Below, one piece after another: positions 453 to 21,739 of a stretch of 37,289 nucleotides of DNA. Origin of the DNA: Magnetovibrio sp. (lineage in GTDB: Bacteria; Pseudomonadota; Alphaproteobacteria; Rhodospirillales; Magnetovibrionaceae); contig JANQJR010000003.1 of assembly GCA_028281525.1 (NCBI GenBank), positions 1 through 37,289 of the forward strand. Reading direction: 5' to 3'. Position 1 is the stretch's first letter, and every line of letters begins with the position of its first letter. The notes under the pieces are model-generated. The model was not told the origin of the DNA. It saw only the letters and a program-made list of their open reading frames with translations, and ran no database searches. Both the position numbers and the translations under genes were made by a program.

Positions 453-619
453 AGTGTATGATCCTCCCGCCAGGCTAAATGGACGTTTTTCTAGATTTCT
501 TGCCCATAGGCGAGATATAGCAGTTCGTGGGAATTCGGCAAAGTTTGATAAGATAAAGAAACGCTGGATTCGAGGGTCTGGAAATCTGGGATTTGAGGTT
601 GAGGACGAACCGGGGACGT

Positions 620-3556
620 ATGCCCTTTAGGAGCGCACCGCTGAAACCCTGGCGTCCCCGCACCGTGCATGGCGGGCGGGCGATGGTTTTGGCGTGCGCA
701 ATTTCTATCCTGCCTGTGGCGCAAGCGGTTTTACCGGACGCCTACCGCCCTTTGCCGGGCGCTTGGGCGCAGATACTGCCCGACGCCGCCACGCAAGAGT
801 TGTTCCTGGCCGTTGACCGTAACGACTTGGACGGGGTGCGCGCCGCCATCGACAAAGGCGCGGACCTCGAAGCGCGCGACTTCACGGGCACCCAACCCGT
901 GGATATGGCCATCGACCGGGGATATTTTGAGATCGCCCGCTATTTGATCTCTGTGCGCAACCTGCGCCAAGACACCCAACAGCCCATACCCGACTTCCCG
1001 AAATTGGCGGCGGAACCTCCCGCGCCGGACGCATCATCCACGCAACCCGCTGAACAATTAGCCGAAACCCCGCCCCCAGAACTAGGACCGCAAGCGACGG
1101 AGCCTCCTCCGCCCGCACCCGCCCCCATGGAACCCGTGGCGGAAGACGACACGATCCCCGACCCGTTTGAAACCGCTGAAGCCGCCGAAAGCCTGCCGGT
1201 GTTGGGCGAAATCCAGGAACCGGAAACGGCCGGGACCGAGTTGGATGAACTCGATGCCCTTTTGGACGCAGCTGAAACGCCCCCAACGGACAACTCCGCG
1301 CCGCCTGAGGGTGAAATAGACCCGTTGGATGCGCTGTTGGCTGAGGCGGAAAACGCTGCCCCCGCCGCGCCGGAAACAACCGAGAGCGTAGCGGATGAAC
1401 TCGACGCCCTTTTGGGCGCAGCTGAAACGCCCCCAACGGACACCTCCGCACCGCCTGAGGGTGAAATAGACCCGTTGGATGCGCTGTTGGGTGAGGCGGA
1501 AAACGCTGCCCCCGCCGCGCCGGAACCACCCGCACCGCCGATCGCGCTGGAACCCGATCCCCAGATCCAAAACCTGCTTGGCCCCGAAGCGGAACTGGAG
1601 ACCGCCGACACTCTCTCGCCCCCGGAACCGCCTACCGACATGGCCAACGCCATGAGCGACTTTAGCATCGGGGATGCCCAAGATGACGCGGAGAGCGACG
1701 CGCAGGAAACCGCGCCCACTGACATGGCCGACGCCATGAGCGACTTTATGATCGAGGATGAAGCCGACGACGAAGCCGAGTTTGAGCTGAACGTCGGGAA
1801 TACGGGCACATCCGAAGCCCCCGACACGGTCCCAGGCACGCTCCCCAACACAGCCCAAGCCGCTGCCGAAGCCGCCCCCCCGATGCCGGAAAAGCCGTCG
1901 GCGGCGCGCCGCTTCATGAGCACCTTCCTGGACTTTTTCAAACCGCCCAACGTCACCGGCGTGGTGCGCCGCGAGGAAGACCGCCAGGTGAGCACCGACG
2001 TGGTGTCGGAAGCGGAACTCGCCCGCGAATTGCAGGAACTGGAGGCCGAGCGCGGCACGGACGCGATCCGCGGCCCCGACGTCCCGATTTCACCGGACGA
2101 ACTGGCGCGCGAACTGCCGCCTGCGCCGGAACTGCCCGACCTACCGGCTGAAGAACTGGCGACCCTTTCGCCCGACTCCCCCGCATTGCCGGAATACAAT
2201 GTTGGCCAACCAGCAGGTGTTGGCCAAACGGCCGGGCAAGATGCGTTTGGCGATTTGGCCATTGAAGAGGTCACGGAAGAAGACGCGCTGCCCATCGTCA
2301 GCCGCGAACTGCTGACGAACAAACCGGCATTCAAGGAAGCGCCTGGCGTGCCCGGCAAACGTTACAACCCCAACAAGCCGTTCGGCGGCGGGGTCGATCC
2401 GGACATTTTGGCCTTCCTGGATTTGGACGCCCGCACCGGCATGACGGATACTGAACGCAACGAAGTTCTCCAAGGCCCCAAGGCCGTCGCCGATGGCGGT
2501 GGGTCCGGCGTAGAAAACGACCCATTTGCGGTGTTGGACGACATTGAAAATGACGACCCGTTCGCCGTCGCGGATGAACCCGCCGCCAATGTCTCGGACC
2601 TGTTGGAAGGCCTGGACGAACCCCAGGATGTCGCCGCGCTGGACGTCAAAACCGCACCATCGCGCGCCGCAGAAGACGACCCCTTCGCCGCCCCGCCCGC
2701 TTCCGACGATCCCTTCGCCGCGCCCGCCGAAGGCGAAGTGGACGAACTGGCCGGCCTATTGGAAGGCCTGGACGATCCGGACACACCGGGCGCGGAAGGC
2801 TGGGACGTCAAAAAGGTCGAGGGAGCCGACATCCCATCGGAAATGATTCTGCTCAGCGAAATCGAACCCACCGGCGAAATTCTCGACGGGGTGGAACTGT
2901 CTTTGGGCCTGGAAACCAAGGTCGGCCAGGAAATGAGCGCGCACCGCCTGGAACTGATGGAACTCGACACCATCCACCGGCCATGCCTGACCAAGGGTGC
3001 TAAGGACACGCTGTTCTGCGTCGACAAGCTGAGTTGGCCGTTCGAACTGGAAGATGATTTCCTGGTCGACACCATCATGTACCAGGGCACCCGCGCCATT
3101 GCACGTTACGACGCCGGGCGGGCCACCAATTTCCACACCCTGTTCCGTACCGAAGCATTCGACAAGGTGATCAACTATTACACCCAACGATACGGTCATC
3201 CCACGGAGATTGTGGAACGCGCCATCGCCCCCCTGGCCGCGCCGCGCCAGGAAAACCCCACATATCTGTGGCAAAGCCGCGAGCCCGGAACCGATACCAT
3301 CGTGACCTTGGAAATCCGCAAGTTCGACGACGCCCAGGGCGGCGGCTTTCCCGACACCAACCGCGGGGTGATCCTGCTCTACAAAGCACATGCCAAACCC
3401 ATCTTCCCGCAACTGTCGCAGTTGGAACTGATGGTGTTGAAGGCCGATGACGACATTTCCGCCAGCTCTGCCAGCGCCGATGGCTTGGGCGGCGAGATCC
3501 AAGGCGAAGGGGACGACCTGGGCCGCACCAGGGCCTCGCCCGAAAGCATTTGGTAG
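620..3556 (+). CDS. Large secreted acidic ankyrin-repeat protein with repetitive middle and unknown C-terminal domain
   Basis: A 978-residue protein from the ATG at 620; an in-frame TTG at 593 and an ATG at 683 are alternatives. I prefer 620 because it keeps basic residues before the hydrophobic stretch MVLACAISILPVAQA, which reads as a signal peptide. About residues 55-110 hold two ankyrin-like repeats (ELFLAVDRNDLDGVRAAID, then a PVDMAIDRGYFEIARYL helix pair). Residues of about 120-720 are low complexity and very acidic, rich in Pro, Ala and Glu. They contain several internal repeats: ELDALL blocks, TDMA-AMSDF blocks, DPFA blocks and LLEGLD blocks. The last 240 residues look folded (aromatics, Cys pair, alternating strands), ending FPQLSQLELMVLKADDD. 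I do not recognise that domain. The likely location is periplasm or surface, with a tether or scaffold role as pure inference. There is no clear terminator, but a palindromic repeat follows. Confidence 0.8.
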   Translation: MPFRSAPLKPWRPRTVHGGRAMVLACAISILPVAQAVLPDAYRPLPGAWAQILPDAATQELFLAVDRNDLDGVRAAIDKGADLEARDFTGTQPVDMAIDRGYFEIARYLISVRNLRQDTQQPIPDFPKLAAEPPAPDASSTQPAEQLAETPPPELGPQATEPPPPAPAPMEPVAEDDTIPDPFETAEAAESLPVLGEIQEPETAGTELDELDALLDAAETPPTDNSAPPEGEIDPLDALLAEAENAAPAAPETTESVADELDALLGAAETPPTDTSAPPEGEIDPLDALLGEAENAAPAAPEPPAPPIALEPDPQIQNLLGPEAELETADTLSPPEPPTDMANAMSDFSIGDAQDDAESDAQETAPTDMADAMSDFMIEDEADDEAEFELNVGNTGTSEAPDTVPGTLPNTAQAAAEAAPPMPEKPSAARRFMSTFLDFFKPPNVTGVVRREEDRQVSTDVVSEAELARELQELEAERGTDAIRGPDVPISPDELARELPPAPELPDLPAEELATLSPDSPALPEYNVGQPAGVGQTAGQDAFGDLAIEEVTEEDALPIVSRELLTNKPAFKEAPGVPGKRYNPNKPFGGGVDPDILAFLDLDARTGMTDTERNEVLQGPKAVADGGGSGVENDPFAVLDDIENDDPFAVADEPAANVSDLLEGLDEPQDVAALDVKTAPSRAAEDDPFAAPPASDDPFAAPAEGEVDELAGLLEGLDDPDTPGAEGWDVKKVEGADIPSEMILLSEIEPTGEILDGVELSLGLETKVGQEMSAHRLELMELDTIHRPCLTKGAKDTLFCVDKLSWPFELEDDFLVDTIMYQGTRAIARYDAGRATNFHTLFRTEAFDKVINYYTQRYGHPTEIVERAIAPLAAPRQENPTYLWQSREPGTDTIVTLEIRKFDDAQGGGFPDTNRGVILLYKAHAKPIFPQLSQLELMVLKADDDISASSASADGLGGEIQGEGDDLGRTRASPESIW
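1244..1525 (+). repeat. Intragenic tandem duplication, 132-bp units with 150-bp period
   Basis: Bases 1244-1375 recur at 1394-1525 with five differences in 132 positions by my count. The units are separated by an 18-bp spacer, so the period is 150 bp and the reading frame is kept. Each unit encodes 44 residues beginning DELDALL and ending ENAAPAAPE. The few differences suggest a recent duplication or ongoing slippage within the disordered region. Confidence 0.9.
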
Positions 3557-13393: not shown

Positions 13394-14977
13394 TTAGATT
13401 TCCAACGTCTTCGGTTTGGTGCGGTGCAGCCATGTGGCCACCAGGATGCGCGTCACCCAGATGGCGGTGAACATGGACGAAACAATGCCGATCGCCAGCG
13501 TCACGGCGAAACCCTGCACCGGGCCGGAGCCAAACGCGAACAGCAGCGTCGCCGCGATCAGGGTCGTGATGTTGGCGTCGATGATGGTGCCGAGCGCGCG
13601 CTTATAGCCCGCGTCCACGGCGGAGAAGACGCCGCGGTCGGTTCTCAGCTCTTCGCGGATGCGTTCGAACACCAGCACATTGGCGTCCACCGCCATGCCG
13701 ATGGTCAGCACGATCCCGGCGATACCGGGCAACGTCAAGGTTGCGCCGAACGCCGAGAGCATGGCGACGATCAAAACCATGTTCATGATCAGCGCCACGT
13801 CGGCATAGACGCCGAAGCGTCCGTAGTAAACCACCATGAACCCGATCACGAGCGCGAGCCCCAACATCGAGGCAACCCGGCCTGCATCCACGCTGTCTTG
13901 GCCCAACCCCGGCCCGACGGAGCGTTCTTCCAACACCGTCAACGGCGCGGGCAGCGCGCCCGCACTCAGCAGTAGCGCAAGCTCCTTGGCGCTTTCGGTG
14001 GTGAACGTGCCGGACGTGATCTGCCCGGAACCGCCGGGAATGATGCCTTGGATGGTCGGCGCGCTGATGACCTTACCATCGAGCACGATGGCGAATGGCA
14101 ATCCTAAGTTTTCGCGTGTGATGTCGGCGAATTTCTTGCCGCCCACGGCGTCGAGGCGGAAGTTCACCGCCGGACGGTTGCGTTCGTCAAAGCCCAACGA
14201 CGCGCTGACCAGCGTGTCGCCACTGACGGACACGCGCTTTTTCAGCAGGTACATGCGCGGACGGCCGTTGGCTTCGAACTCGTCGATGGACGGCAGCAGC
14301 ATGGAACCCGGCGGCACTCGGCCCGCCATGGCGTCGGCCAGCGAGCCTTGGTGGTCGAGCAAATGGAAGGTCAGCTTCGCGGTCTGGCCGATGATGCTCT
14401 TGAGCTTTTCCGGATCGTCCTCGCCGGGCACCTGGAGCAGGATGCGCTCCTCGCCCTGGCGGGTGATGGTCGGCTCTTTCACGCCTTGCGGGTCGACGCG
14501 GCGACGCACGATTTCGACGGACTGTTCCACCGCCTGGATGCGCACTTCCTTCAAAGTCTGCTCGGTCATGGTCATGGTGACCTGACCGTCATCCAGCAGT
14601 TCGCTGTCAAAACCGCTTTCCATGGCGCGGATGAGGTCATAGGCCCGCTCAGCCAATGCGGGGTCCTTGATCGTCACGGCGACGCCCGTGGCGCTGGCCC
14701 CCAGTCCGGTGTAGCGGATGCGTTCCTTGCGCAGCTCCGTGCGGATGGTGTCGACCAGCGCTTCCAAGCGCTCCCTGACCACCACGCCGACTTCGACCTC
14801 CAACAACAGGTGCGAACCGCCCTGCAGGTCGAGACCGAGATTGATCTGGTTCTTGGGCAAGAAGTCCGGCAGATCGGCCGCCGTCTGCTCGTCCAAGAGG
14901 TTCGGCGCGGCAAAAGCCAGCCCCAAGGCGCAAATCAAGGCGACCAGGGCTTTCTTCCAGGTTTCGATCTTAAGCAT
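13394..14977 (-). CDS. secD: Protein translocase subunit SecD
   Basis: A 527-residue inner-membrane protein, typical of alphaproteobacterial SecD. TM1 is near residues 8-25, then INLGLDLQGGSHLLLEVEVG, the D1 signature. The large periplasmic P1 domain spans about 40-340. The C-terminal five helices include the conserved VLTIGMAVDANVLVFERIREEL loop with the Asp required for proton coupling, and FGSGPVQGFAVTLAIGIVSSMFTAI. It works with SecF and YajC as the accessory complex of the Sec translocon. It lies between yajC (46 bases upstream) and secF in one transcription unit. Confidence 0.97.
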   Translation of the reverse strand: MLKIETWKKALVALICALGLAFAAPNLLDEQTAADLPDFLPKNQINLGLDLQGGSHLLLEVEVGVVVRERLEALVDTIRTELRKERIRYTGLGASATGVAVTIKDPALAERAYDLIRAMESGFDSELLDDGQVTMTMTEQTLKEVRIQAVEQSVEIVRRRVDPQGVKEPTITRQGEERILLQVPGEDDPEKLKSIIGQTAKLTFHLLDHQGSLADAMAGRVPPGSMLLPSIDEFEANGRPRMYLLKKRVSVSGDTLVSASLGFDERNRPAVNFRLDAVGGKKFADITRENLGLPFAIVLDGKVISAPTIQGIIPGGSGQITSGTFTTESAKELALLLSAGALPAPLTVLEERSVGPGLGQDSVDAGRVASMLGLALVIGFMVVYYGRFGVYADVALIMNMVLIVAMLSAFGATLTLPGIAGIVLTIGMAVDANVLVFERIREELRTDRGVFSAVDAGYKRALGTIIDANITTLIAATLLFAFGSGPVQGFAVTLAIGIVSSMFTAIWVTRILVATWLHRTKPKTLEI

Positions 14978-15616: not shown

Positions 15617-16477
15617 ATGACGGATCAGGACTTAAAGCCGGTTTTGGAACGGATTGCGGACGCCTTGGAACGCTTGGCCCCCGCACCGGACAACGCACCG
15701 GACTTCACCACCGCCGATGCTTACGTGTGGCAAGCGGATGGCGCGCGCTTCACCCCCGTGCCAGACGTCAACCGGGTGGATTTCGACCTGCTCAAGGGAA
15801 TTGAGCGCCAAGCCGAAACCCTGCTCGCCAACACCCGCCAGTTCGCCGATGGCCTGGCAGCCAACAACGCACTGCTATGGGGTGCGCGTGGCACGGGCAA
15901 AAGCTCGCTGGTCAAGGCCGTGCACGCTCAGGTCAACCAAGACCGGGGCGATCCCATCTTGTTGGTGGAAATCCACCGCGAAGACATCCCGTCCCTGCCC
16001 CAGCTCCTGGACATCCTGAAGCGGATGGGCCAGCGCACCGTGCTGTTTTGCGACGATCTGTCGTTCGACGCCGATGATACGTCCTATAAATCTCTCAAGG
16101 CCGTTTTGGAGGGCGGCATCGAAGGAAGGCCGGACAACGTGATTTTCTACGCCACTTCCAACCGCCGCCATCTGATGGCGCGCGATATGATCGAAAACGA
16201 ACGCAGCAACGCCATCAATCCGTCCGAAGCGGTTGAGGAAAAGGTTTCCTTGTCCGATCGTTTCGGGTTGTGGTTGGGTTTTCACAACCTCGATCAAGCG
16301 ACGTATTTCGAAATTTGCCAGAGCTATGCAGAGCATTACCGCCTCGACATCACCCCGCAGGACCTGCGGGCCCAGGCGTTGGAATGGTCGGTGACCCGTG
16401 GCGCGCGCTCGGGCCGGGTTGCGTGGCAGTTTATCCAGGACTTGGCTGGCAAACAGGGCAAAATGTTACGCTCGTAA
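15617..16477 (+). CDS. DUF815-family AAA+ ATPase
   Basis: A 286-residue P-loop ATPase. Walker A is GARGTGKSS (about 89-97), Walker B is VLFCDDLSF, and the sensor 1 Asn is in FYATSNRRHL. The segment VSLSDRFGLWLGF matches the family arginine-finger region. This matches the DUF815 family (ORC/Cdc6-like AAA proteins of bacteria), whose members have no settled function. The N-terminal 60 residues form a short helical region that lacks the fold. The gene is divergent from yajC, a neighbourhood often seen in Alphaproteobacteria. The start at 15617 gives a standard N-terminus; no strong ribosome site precedes it. Confidence 0.9.
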   Translation: MTDQDLKPVLERIADALERLAPAPDNAPDFTTADAYVWQADGARFTPVPDVNRVDFDLLKGIERQAETLLANTRQFADGLAANNALLWGARGTGKSSLVKAVHAQVNQDRGDPILLVEIHREDIPSLPQLLDILKRMGQRTVLFCDDLSFDADDTSYKSLKAVLEGGIEGRPDNVIFYATSNRRHLMARDMIENERSNAINPSEAVEEKVSLSDRFGLWLGFHNLDQATYFEICQSYAEHYRLDITPQDLRAQALEWSVTRGARSGRVAWQFIQDLAGKQGKMLRS

Positions 16478-16542
16478 AGTGATGTAAAAAAACTACATGA
16501 TAAAGGGGCGCAGGAACGGACCATAGAAGGGGCAAGACCAAG

Positions 16543-17103
16543 ATGCCAAAAAACACGGACGATCCAAACCTTCCCTCACCGACCGTTTACATGCTTGATC
16601 GCAAAGACGTCATCGTCGATGTCAATGATGCCTGGAACGCTTTCGCCACCCACAACGATGCGCCGGAGCTGATATCCGAGCGCGTCATCGGCAATTCCTT
16701 GGCGAGCTACGTGACCGGCGACATCACCAAGATGTATGTGCAAACCGTCTTGCAGAATGTCCGCATGATCGGCAAACCCATCCACCGCCACTACCGCTGC
16801 GATTCCCCCACCCTGAAACGCTACATGGAAATGTCCATCAAACCGGACGGTAAAAACCTTCAACTCGCACACAAGGTTATACGAACGGAAGACATGACCT
16901 GCACGGTGCATTTCAATGCGGCATTAACCCCGTCCGAGCCTCAAATCACCAAACGCTGCAGTTCGTGTGGGCGCGTCGAAGCCCAAAAAGCGGTGTGGGT
17001 GGAAGCGGACGATCTGTACGCGGCGAAGCACGGGGCAAAAGATGTCACGGTCATGGTGGAGTACACCATATGTCCCGTTTGTGAGGCCACCGCCAGCCAA
17101 TAA
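16543..17103 (+). CDS. PAS-like sensor protein with C-terminal zinc-ribbon cysteines
   Basis: A 186-residue soluble protein. Residues 15-125 have a PAS-like pattern: VYMLDRKDVIVDVNDAWNAF, then VIGNSLASYV and a helix followed by YRCDSPTLKRYMEMSI. Residues 135-180 hold two CxxC pairs (C139/C142 in RCSSCGR and C177/C180 in ICPVCE), which could bind one zinc. A PAS-like module fused to a zinc ribbon with no kinase or cyclase output suggests an adaptor or redox/metal sensor; this is inference. GAAGGGGC lies before the ATG. A terminator follows within 30 bases, so it probably ends the transcript begun at the DUF815 ATPase, 65 bases upstream. Confidence 0.75.
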   Translation: MPKNTDDPNLPSPTVYMLDRKDVIVDVNDAWNAFATHNDAPELISERVIGNSLASYVTGDITKMYVQTVLQNVRMIGKPIHRHYRCDSPTLKRYMEMSIKPDGKNLQLAHKVIRTEDMTCTVHFNAALTPSEPQITKRCSSCGRVEAQKAVWVEADDLYAAKHGAKDVTVMVEYTICPVCEATASQ

Positions 17104-18150: not shown

Positions 18151-18196
18151 ATATTCGCAGGTTATTGCGTGATATTAATTTATTTTCGCATATAAT
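18151..18196 (+). promoter_or_regulatory. Promoter and candidate Lrp-type operator for ald
   Basis: A perfect TATAAT lies at 18191-18196, with a TTGCGT 20 bases upstream (18165-18170), so the -35 spacing is long. The -35 region overlaps a near-palindrome at 18151-18175, where CGCA (18156-18159) mirrors TGCG (18166-18169) and both flanks are ATAT. A weak -35 overlapped by a regulator site fits activation by the divergent Lrp-like protein. The region also covers the lrp-type start, allowing autoregulation. Confidence 0.45.
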
Positions 18197-18299
18197 TCAA
18201 ATATTAGCGGCATATCAGGCAACTTCGCAAGCACCTTTCACGGTTATTCCCGTACGCTGGACCCATTCATCAAAGCCAGCAAGAACAAGGAGTTTCGCC

Positions 18300-19418
18300 A
18301 TGTTGATCGGTGTTCCCAAAGAGATCAAAAACCACGAATACCGCGTCGGCCTGACGCCCGACAGCGTGCGTGAATTCGTCGCCCACGGCCACGACGTCAT
18401 CGTCGAAACCAATGCAGGTGCCGGGATCGGTTGCCTGGACACGGCCTACCGGAACGCGGGCGCACAAATCGTCGACGAAGCGGCGGATGTTTTCGCCCGC
18501 GCCGACATGGTGGTCAAGGTCAAGGAACCCCAGGCGGTCGAGCGCAAGATGCTGCGCGAAGACCAGATTTTGTTCACATACCTGCACTTGGCACCCGACA
18601 CTGAGCAAACCCGCGACTTGGTCGACAGCGGTGCGGTGTGCGTGGCCTATGAAACCGTGACGGGCGCAAACGGCGGCCTGCCCCTGCTCGCCCCCATGAG
18701 CCAAGTCGCGGGCCGCATGTCCATCCAGGCCGGCGCGCACGCGCTGGAAAAGGCGCACGGCGGCGAAGGCATTCTTTTGGGCGGCGTGCCCGGCGTGGCC
18801 CCGGCCAAAGTCGCCGTCATCGGCGGCGGTGTGGTTGGCGAAAATGCCATTCAGATGGCGCTGGGCATGGGGGCGGATGTTACCGTTCTGGACCGCAACG
18901 TCGATGTGCTGGACAGGCTGTCGGCGCGCTTCGGCCCGCAATTGAAGACCGTGTTCTCTTCCGCCGCCGCATTGGAAGACACCGTGTGGAACGCGGACCT
19001 GGTGGTCGGCGCGGTGCTGATCAAGGGCGCCGCCGCGCCGAAGCTGGTGACCAAGGAGATGTTAGAGGGTATGCGTGCGGGCGCGGTCCTGGTGGACGTC
19101 GCCATCGACCAGGGCGGCTGTTTCGAAACCTCGCATGCCACCACCCACGCGGACCCAACCTATGTGGTGGACGACATCGTGCACTACTGCGTCGCCAACA
19201 TGCCGGGTGCAGTGCCGCGCACGTCCACTTACGCGCTCAACAACGCCACGCTTCCCTTCGGTCTCGCGCTGGCGGACAAGGGCTACAAGCACGCGCTGTT
19301 GGACAACCCGCATTTTCTGGAAGGCCTGAACGTCTATCACGGTCACATCACCTACAAGGCCGTGGCCGAAGATCAGGGCTACGCCTATTTCGATCCGAAA
19401 CAAGCGCTGGCGGCCTAA
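18300..19418 (+). CDS. ald: Alanine dehydrogenase
   Basis: A 372-residue protein, the full family length. It converts L-alanine to pyruvate, ammonia and NADH. The ATG at 18300 follows AAGGAG and gives the standard start [20 protein letters not shown] with substrate-binding Arg15. KVKEPQ supplies the substrate Lys and YLHLAPD the catalytic His. The Rossmann motif [13 protein letters not shown] lies near residues 175-190. The conserved SQVAGRMS segment precedes it. The gene has its own promoter, a long 5' leader of about 100 bases and a perfect terminator. It is divergent from an Lrp-type regulator, the usual arrangement for alanine catabolism. Confidence 0.97.
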
Positions 19419-19441: not shown

Positions 19442-19480
19442 AACAAGGCGAAGCTGTGATCAGCTTCGCCTTGTTATTTT
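19442..19480 (+). terminator. Rho-independent terminator of ald
   Basis: A perfect 15-bp stem (19442-19456 with 19461-19475) closes on a TGAT loop and is followed by ATTTTGTT. The flanking A and T residues would let it work in both directions, ending the convergent gene at 19508-19801 as well. Confidence 0.92.
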
Positions 19481-19507: not shown

Positions 19508-19801
19508 TTAGAAGTAGTCCGACATCTTGAGGTATCCGATGGCTACAGCAAGCAGTATCAAGACGATGGCGAACACCCACGACATCAGAGCCGCCCTTTT
19601 GGCTTTGCGCGCCCGTTCCGGACCGGACTCAACTGTATTCGGTTTGAGTTCACCTATGCGCCGCGCAACCTCAGCCTTTGCCAACTCCTGCTTCCAGGGG
19701 CGAAGAAACGCGTTCTCATCCAGTCGTTTGACGATGACCTCAACCGGCGTTTGCGCCAATTTGGCCTTGAAGGCGGCGTGTTCCGCTGGGTCCACGGACA
19801 T
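19508..19801 (-). CDS. Small C-tail-anchored membrane protein, unknown function
   Basis: A 97-residue protein from the ATG at 19801 (MSVDPAEHAAFKAKLAQTPV); a TTG two codons upstream is possible. The ribosome site is weak. Residues 1-65 are charged and helical, followed by a basic ERARKAKRAA stretch and one transmembrane helix ALMSWVFAIVLILLAVAIGYL ending KMSDYF. The topology suggests a cytoplasmic N-domain and a membrane anchor near the C-terminus. I do not recognise the family. It lies between the ald terminator and the left repeat of the nlpD-end duplication, in an area that seems accessory. Confidence 0.6.
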   Translation of the reverse strand: MSVDPAEHAAFKAKLAQTPVEVIVKRLDENAFLRPWKQELAKAEVARRIGELKPNTVESGPERARKAKRAALMSWVFAIVLILLAVAIGYLKMSDYF

Positions 19802-19955
19802 GTTCAAATCCAGTTATACGCGGTGTTGCATGCAGTCCTACTCATGGGGGAGACAGTGTCTGCCCACATCTTGTTTCCGCTGAATTCAGGAAAGTGTCAA
19901 CGCAATTGTCTTGTTCAAGCGTTATGCATCAGATTCTGAAGTTTCGAAATCGAGA

Positions 19956-19994
19956 TTACATGTACTTCTTGGGATCGACGGCGCGCGAGCCCCG
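19956..19994 (-). repeat. 39-bp direct repeat, distal copy of the nlpD 3' end
   Basis: Bases 19956-19994 are identical to 20798-20836, the last 39 bases of the nlpD-like gene including its stop codon; the offset is exactly 842. On the minus strand this copy would read GSRAVDPKKYM then stop, but no nlpD sequence precedes it. It begins two bases after the stop codon of the 238-residue gene. Identity ends abruptly at both borders, as for an attachment-site duplication. Confidence 0.95.
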
Positions 19995-19996
19995 TC

Positions 19997-20713
19997 TCAT
20001 GGAGTCGTCCAGCTTTTGCCAGGGGGCGGAACGTACAGGCAGATATCTTGTATTCTCACCCCCTTGAACTCATGCCAAATGGTGATGGCGGCGGCCCTGA
20101 TGACCAACCCACATACAGCCAAGTATGCAATATAGTCACCGAAGTGGTAATGCCCTTGATAGCCGAGAGCATATCTTACGAAACCTGTTACAGGTATAAG
20201 CAACACAACAATTCCAACTACAAATAGAAATGCCTGAGAAACGTATACAAAGAACGGCTTTCTATTTTTGTACTCACTTATTTTAAGAAGCTCCGGTTTT
20301 GGGTGTGGCGCATTCACAACCTGACATTTGCTCAACAGAGCATACAAACCCGGCACCATTAAGTGATGCTGAAATCTAAAAAATAATAAGAACAGCCCTG
20401 CTTCAACAATGAACAAACCAACCGTCCCCAACACAGAAAAATTTTCCTGCTTAAAGTGGTTGCTAACGTAAGGGTGGAGCGTATCTGCAATAAACGGAAA
20501 AATAAGAAGCAGTACCAGCCCCAGCAACACAGTATAGACGGCGACTTTTCCATATGCGAAAGAATCAGAAAGCACCTTATCCGCGGTCTCAAAATCGAGC
20601 ACATACCCCGGCCCCCACGTCGTTGGCCAGTACAAGATGCGATCATCTTCATCGACAAAGAAACCTGATCTCTGATGAGCGTCTTCATCTGCTCTGAGCC
20701 AGCGGTATGCCAT
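19997..20713 (-). CDS. Four-helix membrane protein of unknown function, cassette cargo
   Basis: A 238-residue protein with a strong ribosome site (AGGGGAAGG) before the ATG at 20713. The N-terminal 50 residues are soluble and rich in acidic and aromatic residues (FFVDEDDRILYWPTTWG). Four transmembrane segments follow: VYTVLLGLVLLLIFPFIA, VGLFIVEAGLFLLFF, VSQAFLFVVGIVVLLIPV and IAYLAVCGLVIRAAAITI. The C-terminus (GVRIQDICLYVPPPGKSW) is short. Codon use is less GC-biased than in the flanking genes. I do not recognise a family. It is transcribed in the same direction as nlpD, 84 bases after its stop codon, so read-through expression is possible. Its position as the sole gene of a repeat-bounded insert suggests an accessory role. 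Confidence 0.75.
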   Translation of the reverse strand: MAYRWLRADEDAHQRSGFFVDEDDRILYWPTTWGPGYVLDFETADKVLSDSFAYGKVAVYTVLLGLVLLLIFPFIADTLHPYVSNHFKQENFSVLGTVGLFIVEAGLFLLFFRFQHHLMVPGLYALLSKCQVVNAPHPKPELLKISEYKNRKPFFVYVSQAFLFVVGIVVLLIPVTGFVRYALGYQGHYHFGDYIAYLAVCGLVIRAAAITIWHEFKGVRIQDICLYVPPPGKSWTTP

Positions 20714-20797
20714 ACCTTCCCCTCTCTCGTGATACGCAACATCACGCGCAGCCTATAACAGACTGGCACAGCCAACAAACATCATAGGTGGAGGCGT

Positions 20798-20836
20798 TTA
20801 CATGTACTTCTTGGGATCGACGGCGCGCGAGCCCCG
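20798..20836 (-). repeat. 39-bp direct repeat, nlpD-proximal copy
   Basis: This is the partner of 19956-19994 and forms the true end of the nlpD-like gene, encoding its last 12 residues and stop. Together the copies are candidate attL and attR sites. Confidence 0.95.
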
Positions 20837-21739
20837 GCGCAGTTCGAAATGCAACTGTGGCGTGGTGACGGAGCCGGTGCTGCCGACCTTGGCGATTTTC
20901 TGGCCGCGCTTCACCCGCTCGCCGCGCTTGACCAACAGCTTGTCGTTGTGGGCGTAGGCCGTGACCCAGCCGCCATCGTGCTTGACCAGCAACAGGTTGC
21001 CGAAACCCCGGATTTCGTTGCCCGCATAGGCCACCACCCCGTTTTCCGACGCCATCACCGGCGTGCCGCGCGGGGCGGCGATGTTGATGCCGTCGTTTTG
21101 CAGGCCCTTGGCTTTGGACCCGAAGGTGGATACCACCTTGCCCTTGAGCGGCCAAGCGAACTTGCCACCGGCGCGCCGGGGCGGCTGCGGAACCTTGACC
21201 TTGGCGACTTGTTGGCTCCCGCCGGTCTGCGCAGACGTGACTTTGACGCGCGGCGCGGCCTTGGGCGCCGGAGCCTTAGGCCCATCCGCAATGGGAATGA
21301 ACACGCCGTCGCGCGGGATGCGCAACTGCTGACCCGGATAGATGGTGTAAGGTTTCTTGATGCCATTGACCCGCGCTAACGCAAACGTGTCGACGTTGTA
21401 GCGCTTGGCGATCATCGACAGATATTCCCCGCGCTTGACCCTGTGCGCGCGGCCCTGGGGCAGAATCAAGCGCTGGCCGATTTTGAGCCCATAGGGCGGG
21501 CGCAGATTGTTGGCATCGATGATCGCACGCGGCGACAGCTTATGGCGGCGCGCGATGGAATACACCGTATCGCCGCGTCCCACCTTTACCGCGGTGGCGT
21601 TGATGAACACGTCCGCGTCACCCGGGTTGGCCAACCGGGGGCCACCGGACGGGAACTCCAGCCCGCCGCACGCGCTCAGCACCAAGAGCGCGCCGAGCGT
21701 CAGAAGTTTTCGCATCAAACGATTGGAATCCATGCGCAT
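20798..21739 (-). CDS. nlpD: NlpD-like lipoprotein: LysM repeats plus degenerate LytM/M23 domain
   Basis: A 313-residue lipoprotein. The lipobox LSAC is preceded by RKLLTLGALLVL; starts at 21739, 21733 or 21715 all keep it and none has a strong ribosome site. Two LysM modules bind peptidoglycan (VGRGDTVYSIARRHKL and VKRGEYLSMIAKRYNV, each ending in a GQ-LxIP motif). The C-terminal M23 domain starts near FAWPLKGKVVSTFG. The zinc ligands of active enzymes are changed: the HxxxD site reads NDGIN, and YAHNDK/HFELRRG remain only in part. This matches NlpD/EnvC-type activators of cell-wall amidases rather than active endopeptidases. It follows pcm on the same strand, as in many proteobacteria. Its last 39 bases are duplicated 842 bases away. 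Confidence 0.9.
   Translation of the reverse strand: MRMDSNRLMRKLLTLGALLVLSACGGLEFPSGGPRLANPGDADVFINATAVKVGRGDTVYSIARRHKLSPRAIIDANNLRPPYGLKIGQRLILPQGRAHRVKRGEYLSMIAKRYNVDTFALARVNGIKKPYTIYPGQQLRIPRDGVFIPIADGPKAPAPKAAPRVKVTSAQTGGSQQVAKVKVPQPPRRAGGKFAWPLKGKVVSTFGSKAKGLQNDGINIAAPRGTPVMASENGVVAYAGNEIRGFGNLLLVKHDGGWVTAYAHNDKLLVKRGERVKRGQKIAKVGSTGSVTTPQLHFELRRGSRAVDPKKYM

What the first reader, a model, noticed from the sequence alone, without database searches (positions are those of the whole stretch)
19956..20836. An 842-bp one-gene segment bounded by an exact 39-bp copy of the nlpD 3' end
The last 39 bases of the nlpD-like gene (20798-20836, ending in its stop codon) recur exactly at 19956-19994. 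Between them lies a single AT-richer gene for a four-helix membrane protein, whose stop codon is two bases from the distal copy. This is the geometry of site-specific integration at a gene's 3' end that restores the host gene, yet there is no integrase and the element is far smaller than a genomic island. It could be a minimal non-autonomous integrating cassette, a remnant of a larger element, or the product of duplication. The cargo gains a place just downstream of a division-related lipoprotein gene.
Basis: partly seen in the sequence, partly recalled or inferred. Interest (0 to 1): 0.75.

Follow-up and report, generated by a model that had tools for sequence, protein, structure and literature searches.

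The report
Foreign gene behind a displaced gene tail
A bacterium seems to have picked up one foreign membrane-protein gene directly behind a cell-wall gene, and a 39-letter copy of that gene's end marks the join; this looks like a rarely caught trace of ordinary gene transfer rather than a new kind of mobile element.

Summary
The last 39 bases of the nlpD-like gene recur exactly, 842 bp away, with one foreign-looking four-helix membrane gene (238 aa) between. No third copy exists in the genome within 3 mismatches. Chance is not credible.

The site-specific-integration reading is weak. No integrase-like gene was found nearby, and the repeat is neither dif-like nor structured. Behind nlpD in 80 places from 79 related genomes, no exact repeat exceeded 16 bp.

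The cargo belongs to a rare, patchy, uncharacterised family: 9 genes in 6 genomes. A distant member in genome G691 lies between a complete sodB gene and a 396-bp, 98%-identical copy of its 3' end. Both repeats end exactly at the stop codon. In G691 all 7 differences are synonymous and the joint shows short homology.

This favours acquisition by recombination anchored on one side only, which displaces the old 3' end behind the newcomer, as seen in lacZ experiments and proposed for T6SS arrays. No same-species genome was available, so the empty site was not seen. New member of a known kind; modest interest.

The parts
20798..21739 (-). nlpD-like gene (LysM and M23 peptidase domains), complete
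   Evidence: Pfam LysM and Peptidase_M23; 69-72% identity to congeners
20798..20836 (-). proximal 39-bp copy: coding 3' end of nlpD with its stop codon
19995..20797 (-). 803-bp inserted segment, GC 0.467 against 0.594 for the window
19997..20713 (-). cargo gene, 238-aa membrane protein with N-terminal GFFVDEDDRILYWP block and four hydrophobic stretches
19956..19994 (-). distal 39-bp copy: displaced end of nlpD, in no listed ORF of 90 aa or more
19508..19807 (-). 99-aa gene for a small protein with one C-terminal hydrophobic stretch; probably the older neighbour pushed back (inference)
   Evidence: relatives elsewhere in G002, G004, G005
18165..19418 (+). alanine-dehydrogenase-like gene (name recalled), convergent with nlpD, the next conserved gene in the genus

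Best explanation
The cargo gene came in behind nlpD by recombination anchored on one side only. DNA from a close relative that carried nlpD followed directly by the membrane gene paired with the resident nlpD by homology. Its other end was joined, without long homology, 39 bases before the end of the resident nlpD: either directly (homology-facilitated illegitimate recombination) or because the fragment had first closed into a small circle that integrated by a single crossover. nlpD stays complete, the newcomer follows it, and the last 39 bases of the resident copy remain as a scar in front of the old downstream DNA. Shown: the repeat, intact nlpD, foreign composition, no match in congeners, a second case of the geometry at another gene. 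Inferred: donor arrangement, order of events, route.
For: Exact 39-bp repeat ending at the stop codon. Cargo GC3 0.485 against 0.756-0.843 and no match in 5 of 5 congeners. No integrase-like gene in the window and no recurrent site in 80 places. Second case: in G691 a family member lies between sodB and a 396-bp, 98.2% copy of the sodB 3' end, again cut at the stop codon; 7 of 7 differences are at third codon positions and 131 of 131 residues are identical, as for two working alleles; the joint shares GGTTnnACAG with the gene piece beyond it. Precedent: in E. coli 56 of 60 selected clones gave a product diagnostic of a partial lacZ-end duplication, 109-950 bp in 14 sequenced (PMC3240628, passages).
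Against: No donor or empty site was seen. Directly joined events usually leave a deletion of the resident DNA rather than a duplication (PMC3240628), so only the circle route predicts a duplication readily, and 39 bp is close to the 30-bp limit quoted for RecA-dependent recombination (PMC2884548). The donor must have had the cargo directly behind the nlpD stop, which moves part of the question to the donor. Microhomology cannot be tested in the window. G691 shows a complex local rearrangement and may have another history; G703's intact gene shares the joint homology only in part. Seven of nine family genes show no such scar (G217 and G260 lie near contig ends). Competence or transfer genes were not looked for.
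Confidence: 0.5

Rival explanations
1. Copying error: the cargo was already behind nlpD, or arrived in the same event, and replication or repair switched template and copied the last 39 bases of nlpD a second time behind it.
For: Needs no second donor copy of nlpD; short repeats at variable segments are common, 10-18% of segments, mostly under 30 bp (PMC2884548, passages).
Against: The copy begins 2 bp behind the cargo stop and ends at the nlpD stop, two coincidences on this reading. It does not explain the allele-like differences in the G691 case.
Confidence: 0.2
2. Site-specific integration: a minimal element without its own integrase, or the remnant of a larger one, inserted at an attachment core in the nlpD 3' end by an enzyme acting in trans.
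For: Geometry, exactness of the repeat and restored nlpD are as expected; the cargo stop lies beside the repeat; the genome has one further integrase-family gene on contig C33.
Against: No repeat above 16 bp in 80 places; no integrase-like hit in the window or eight other stretches (three query integrases); no third 39-bp copy; not dif-like, 13 of 28 against a random mean of 13.1; no fold. The two scars have unrelated sequence and differ tenfold in length.
Confidence: 0.17
3. Other: insertion with a long target-site duplication by an unrecognised transposase-like enzyme, or an assembly join at a 39-base overlap.
For: 39 bases equals the overlap expected for k = 40 assemblers (recalled); the genome is a draft of 72 contigs.
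Against: No inverted repeat links the two ends of the insert in the list. The cargo has relatives. A wrong join would still need the 39 bp on both pieces. The G691 case lies in a one-contig genome.
Confidence: 0.13

Closest known systems
Homology-facilitated illegitimate recombination and single crossover of trimmed circles (PMC3240628, passages seen)
   Same: Foreign DNA behind a resident gene, anchored by that gene's end; partial duplication of the gene end (109-950 bp) in sequenced lacZ clones
   Different: Here only 39 bp; natural event, donor unknown; direct joining usually leaves deletions
Displaced effector 3' ends and orphan genes in Vibrio T6SS clusters (PMC5361080, passages seen)
   Same: Newcomer inserted behind a shared upstream region, old 3' end and old neighbour pushed downstream
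   Different: nlpD is a housekeeping gene, not an effector; the resident protein's end is not changed; one newcomer only
Small variable segments flanked by repeats (PMC2884548, passages seen)
   Same: Short, foreign-looking segment between direct repeats, no known mobile element
   Different: Most repeats there are under 30 bp and are taken as deletion substrates
Cis-mobilisable elements and islands at gene 3' ends (recalled)
   Same: Direct repeat of the gene end on both sides, gene restored
   Different: No integrase relation, no recurrent site, far smaller
Integron gene cassette (recalled)
   Same: One gene whose stop lies next to a repeat
   Different: The 39 bp has no GTT on either strand and no attC-like fold

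Membership tests
One-sided homologous recombination scar (HFIR or single crossover) | Anchor gene complete, followed by incoming DNA | tested here: met
   nlpD full length and conserved to its end
One-sided homologous recombination scar (HFIR or single crossover) | Partial copy of the anchor gene's end at the far side of the newcomer | tested here: met
   39 bp, exact
One-sided homologous recombination scar (HFIR or single crossover) | Incoming DNA foreign | tested here: met
   GC3 0.485; no match in 5 congeners
One-sided homologous recombination scar (HFIR or single crossover) | Short homology at the non-anchored joint | not testable with these tools
   donor sequence unknown for the window; GGTTnnACAG seen at the G691 joint
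One-sided homologous recombination scar (HFIR or single crossover) | Empty site and donor form in the same species | not testable with these tools
   no same-species genome held; congeners not comparable behind nlpD
Integrase-dependent element at a gene 3' end | Direct repeat containing the gene end | tested here: met
Integrase-dependent element at a gene 3' end | Integrase within the element | tested here: not met
   one gene only between the copies; no integrase-like hit
Integrase-dependent element at a gene 3' end | Same site used by other cargo in relatives | tested here: not met
   0 of 80 places with an exact repeat above 16 bp; some contigs end early
Xer/dif element | dif-like core | tested here: not met
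   13 of 28 positions, random segments mean 13.1, maximum 17; consensus recalled
Integron cassette | GTTRRRY core and foldable attC | tested here: not met
   no GTT on either strand of the 39 bp (reading); folding z-score -0.01

The most novel reading that the evidence does not exclude
The GFFVDxDDRILYWP membrane proteins are the cargo of an unrecognised, integrase-free transfer habit: they repeatedly settle beside the stop codons of core genes (nlpD, proS, sodB, acnB, livF) by borrowing homology to the neighbouring gene. Two of nine genes still show the displaced gene end, which would make the family a natural record of how single genes spread without mobile elements.
Probability: 0.15. Interest if true: 0.7.

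Novelty: new member of a known kind. Interest (0 to 1): 0.35.

Why it matters
How single foreign genes enter chromosomes without mobile elements is mostly inferred from gene content alone. A 39-bp (and elsewhere a 396-bp) leftover of a resident gene end, cut exactly at the stop codon, would be a readable scar of such an entry and could be searched for genome-wide. The cargo itself is a rare, unnamed membrane-protein family with patchy, foreign-looking occurrence.

Tried and rejected
Recurrent nlpD attachment site: in 80 places from 79 genomes no exact repeat above 16 bp of the stretch from 90 bases before to 15 after the nlpD stop; downstream lengths were 168 bp to 17 kb because some contigs end early; one XerC-like gene 11.7 kb away in one locus. 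In 29 relatives at 1.5 kb or less the longest exact repeat was 12 bp.

Further 39-bp copies: none in the genome within 3 mismatches. Viral contigs: none for an exact 27-base piece or a degenerate 26-base pattern.

Cargo elsewhere: mem238 gave no match on plasmids or phages; three longer family members gave none on plasmids and were not tried on phages; profile A2 gave none in viral contigs. In genome contigs mem238 alone found nothing and A2 found two loci, whose contig lengths equal those of G217 and G260.

A second scar behind proS, where the paralogue sits: a 15-bp match 1.9 kb downstream does not reach the proS stop nor lie at the edge of the paralogue. Taken as chance.

Tandem duplication alone: the DNA after the two 39-bp copies differs from the first base, so further steps would be needed.

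Dropped rows: G489 and G584 (E 1.5e-4 and 7.6e-4) and G094, G205, G314 (E 0.003-0.008) match only parts outside the N-terminal block and were left out of the family.

Structure of the cargo: mean pLDDT 53 with 3 sequences, too poor for a fold search, which I did not run. A profile search of PDB sequences gave one match, at E 0.71.

Paper searches (no paper; no paper for DUF2927) brought nothing that I used. One search failed on its wording. No search was made that could support a claim that this is not in print, and I make none.

Full report
Observation. The two 39-bp copies are exact and are the only ones in the held genome within 3 mismatches. The proximal copy is the coding 3' end of a complete nlpD-like gene (LysM and M23 domains). 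The distal copy lies 803 bp further on and in no listed ORF of 90 aa or more. Both end at the third base of the stop codon; what follows differs from the first base. Between them lies one gene, 19997-20713 minus, whose stop is 2 bp from the distal copy. It has four hydrophobic stretches. Its GC3 is 0.485 against 0.756-0.843 for seven window genes.

How unusual. In 86 sources (1.01 Mb, one small overlap) ten exact direct repeats of at least 30 bp at 150-5000 bp spacing were listed, the window's among them; seven of the other nine come in close pairs or series at 150, 273, 366 or 432 bp spacing, and two are single 30- and 31-bp pairs. In 91 loci (1.08 Mb) I asked for direct repeats of at least 30 bp and 80% identity that end within 6 nt of the stop of an ORF of at least 100 aa. 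Of 14 repeats listed, two did: the window's and that of L061 in G691. The window was chosen because of its repeat and L061 because it holds a relative of the cargo. The fair statement is that one of six family stretches found by homology shows it, against none of 84 stretches fetched for other reasons.

Surroundings in relatives. In congeners G002, G003, G004 and G005 the first gene behind nlpD encodes a small membrane protein (DUF4389 by Pfam in the one tested, G002; the other three look alike), and the alanine-dehydrogenase-like gene follows 426-2309 bp from nlpD. In 61 of 80 places from the order an ATPase gene like window 15617-16477 lies 7-5042 bp behind nlpD. The interval is thus a place of frequent gene change rather than an attachment site. 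None of the 80 shows an exact repeat above 16 bp; the one integrase-like hit is 11.7 kb away. Whether G000 has the DUF4389 gene elsewhere was not tested.

The cargo family. mem238 has a paralogue (218 aa) in the same genome that starts 12 bp behind the proS stop; in the four congeners where the proS end could be read other DNA follows it. Other members are in G260 and G217 (505 and 506 aa, with a DUF2927 match just under and just over Pfam's cut-off), G691 (two), G706 (two) and G704 (one). Counts: 3 of 317 order genomes with profile A2; 4 of 385 class genomes, two of them weak and dropped; 3 of 14 in the family of G691 and the same 3 of 43 in its order. That makes nine genes in six genomes. 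Eight share most of an N-terminal block GFFVDxDDRILYWP...GYV; G704's copy is more divergent. Four members tested match no NCBIfam, PADLOC or PHROGs model convincingly, and three others match no Pfam model at E 0.01. The window gene and its paralogue have GC3 0.485 and 0.539 against 0.756-0.843 for window genes; the other seven each have a lower GC3 than a neighbouring gene of their genome. They are probably passed between lineages (inference).

Second case. In G691 a member (L061:14661-16193) lies between the complete sodB (16250-16846, Pfam) and a 396-bp copy of its 3' end (13813-14208), 98.2% identical. Again the repeat stops at the last base of the stop codon. All 7 differences are at third codon positions, and the 131 copied residues are identical, so both copies seem to descend from working alleles. 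The partial copy runs into a piece of another gene (phytanoyl-CoA-dioxygenase-like, name recalled) that G703 and G705 keep longer between sodB and gatB (G420 has gatB nearby without that match). The joint shares GGTTnnACAG with G705's gene and less with G703's. G706 has gatB, two family members and sodB in a row without a scar. This is what one-sided recombination anchored in sodB would leave. The region also holds several further genes absent from G706's, so a more complex history is possible.

Mechanism. In homology-facilitated illegitimate recombination one end of incoming DNA pairs with the chromosome and the other is joined without long homology, in most cases at 3-10 bp of shared sequence, and usually with a deletion. 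In an E. [quoted passage not shown] 4 of 60 appeared to be the direct kind (PMC3240628, passages). For T6SS clusters of Vibrio a like process is proposed to push an old effector's 3' end and old neighbours behind new modules (PMC5361080, passages). Repeats flank 10-18% of small variable segments in the species of PMC2884548 (passages). The window fits the pattern: nlpD, newcomer, old nlpD end, old neighbour (the 99-aa gene). Shown here: anatomy, composition, no match in congeners, the second case. Inferred: donor, direction, route.

Against site-specific integration. tblastn with the XerC- and XerD-like proteins and the C33 integrase of this genome (my labels) found nothing in the window or in eight other family stretches; an unlike integrase could be missed. 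In the own genome three Phage_integrase matches pass the cut-off, one more is below it, and none lies on the window's contig. The 39 bp resembles dif no more than random DNA and does not fold. The two scars differ tenfold in length. I still give this reading 0.17, because only a same-species comparison can exclude it.

Verdict. A real feature, well read by the first stage, best taken as the scar of an ordinary but seldom caught kind of gene acquisition. What deserves a further look is the cargo family and a genome-wide search for repeats that end at stop codons.

Noticed in passing
window 1301-1525: Exact 40- and 34-bp repeats 150 bp apart inside the large proline-rich ORF at 593-3556.
   Followed up: no
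window 19442-19475: A strong terminator-like hairpin (15 pairs) between the convergent alanine-dehydrogenase-like and 99-aa genes.
   Followed up: no
L037:1501-2157 (same genome): A 218-aa paralogue of the cargo starts 12 bp behind the proS stop, also low in GC3, without a scar.
   Followed up: yes
L061:13813-16645 (G691): sodB 3' end displaced behind a member of the cargo family, next to a piece of another gene.
   Followed up: partly
L039:414-1931, L040:281-1801: Longer family members carry a weak or marginal DUF2927 match; a two-part protein family with no paper found under that name.
   Followed up: partly
L065:7757-9079 (same genome, contig C33): A 440-aa integrase-family gene beside unrelated-looking genes, possibly an island; its attachment site was not found.
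   Followed up: no
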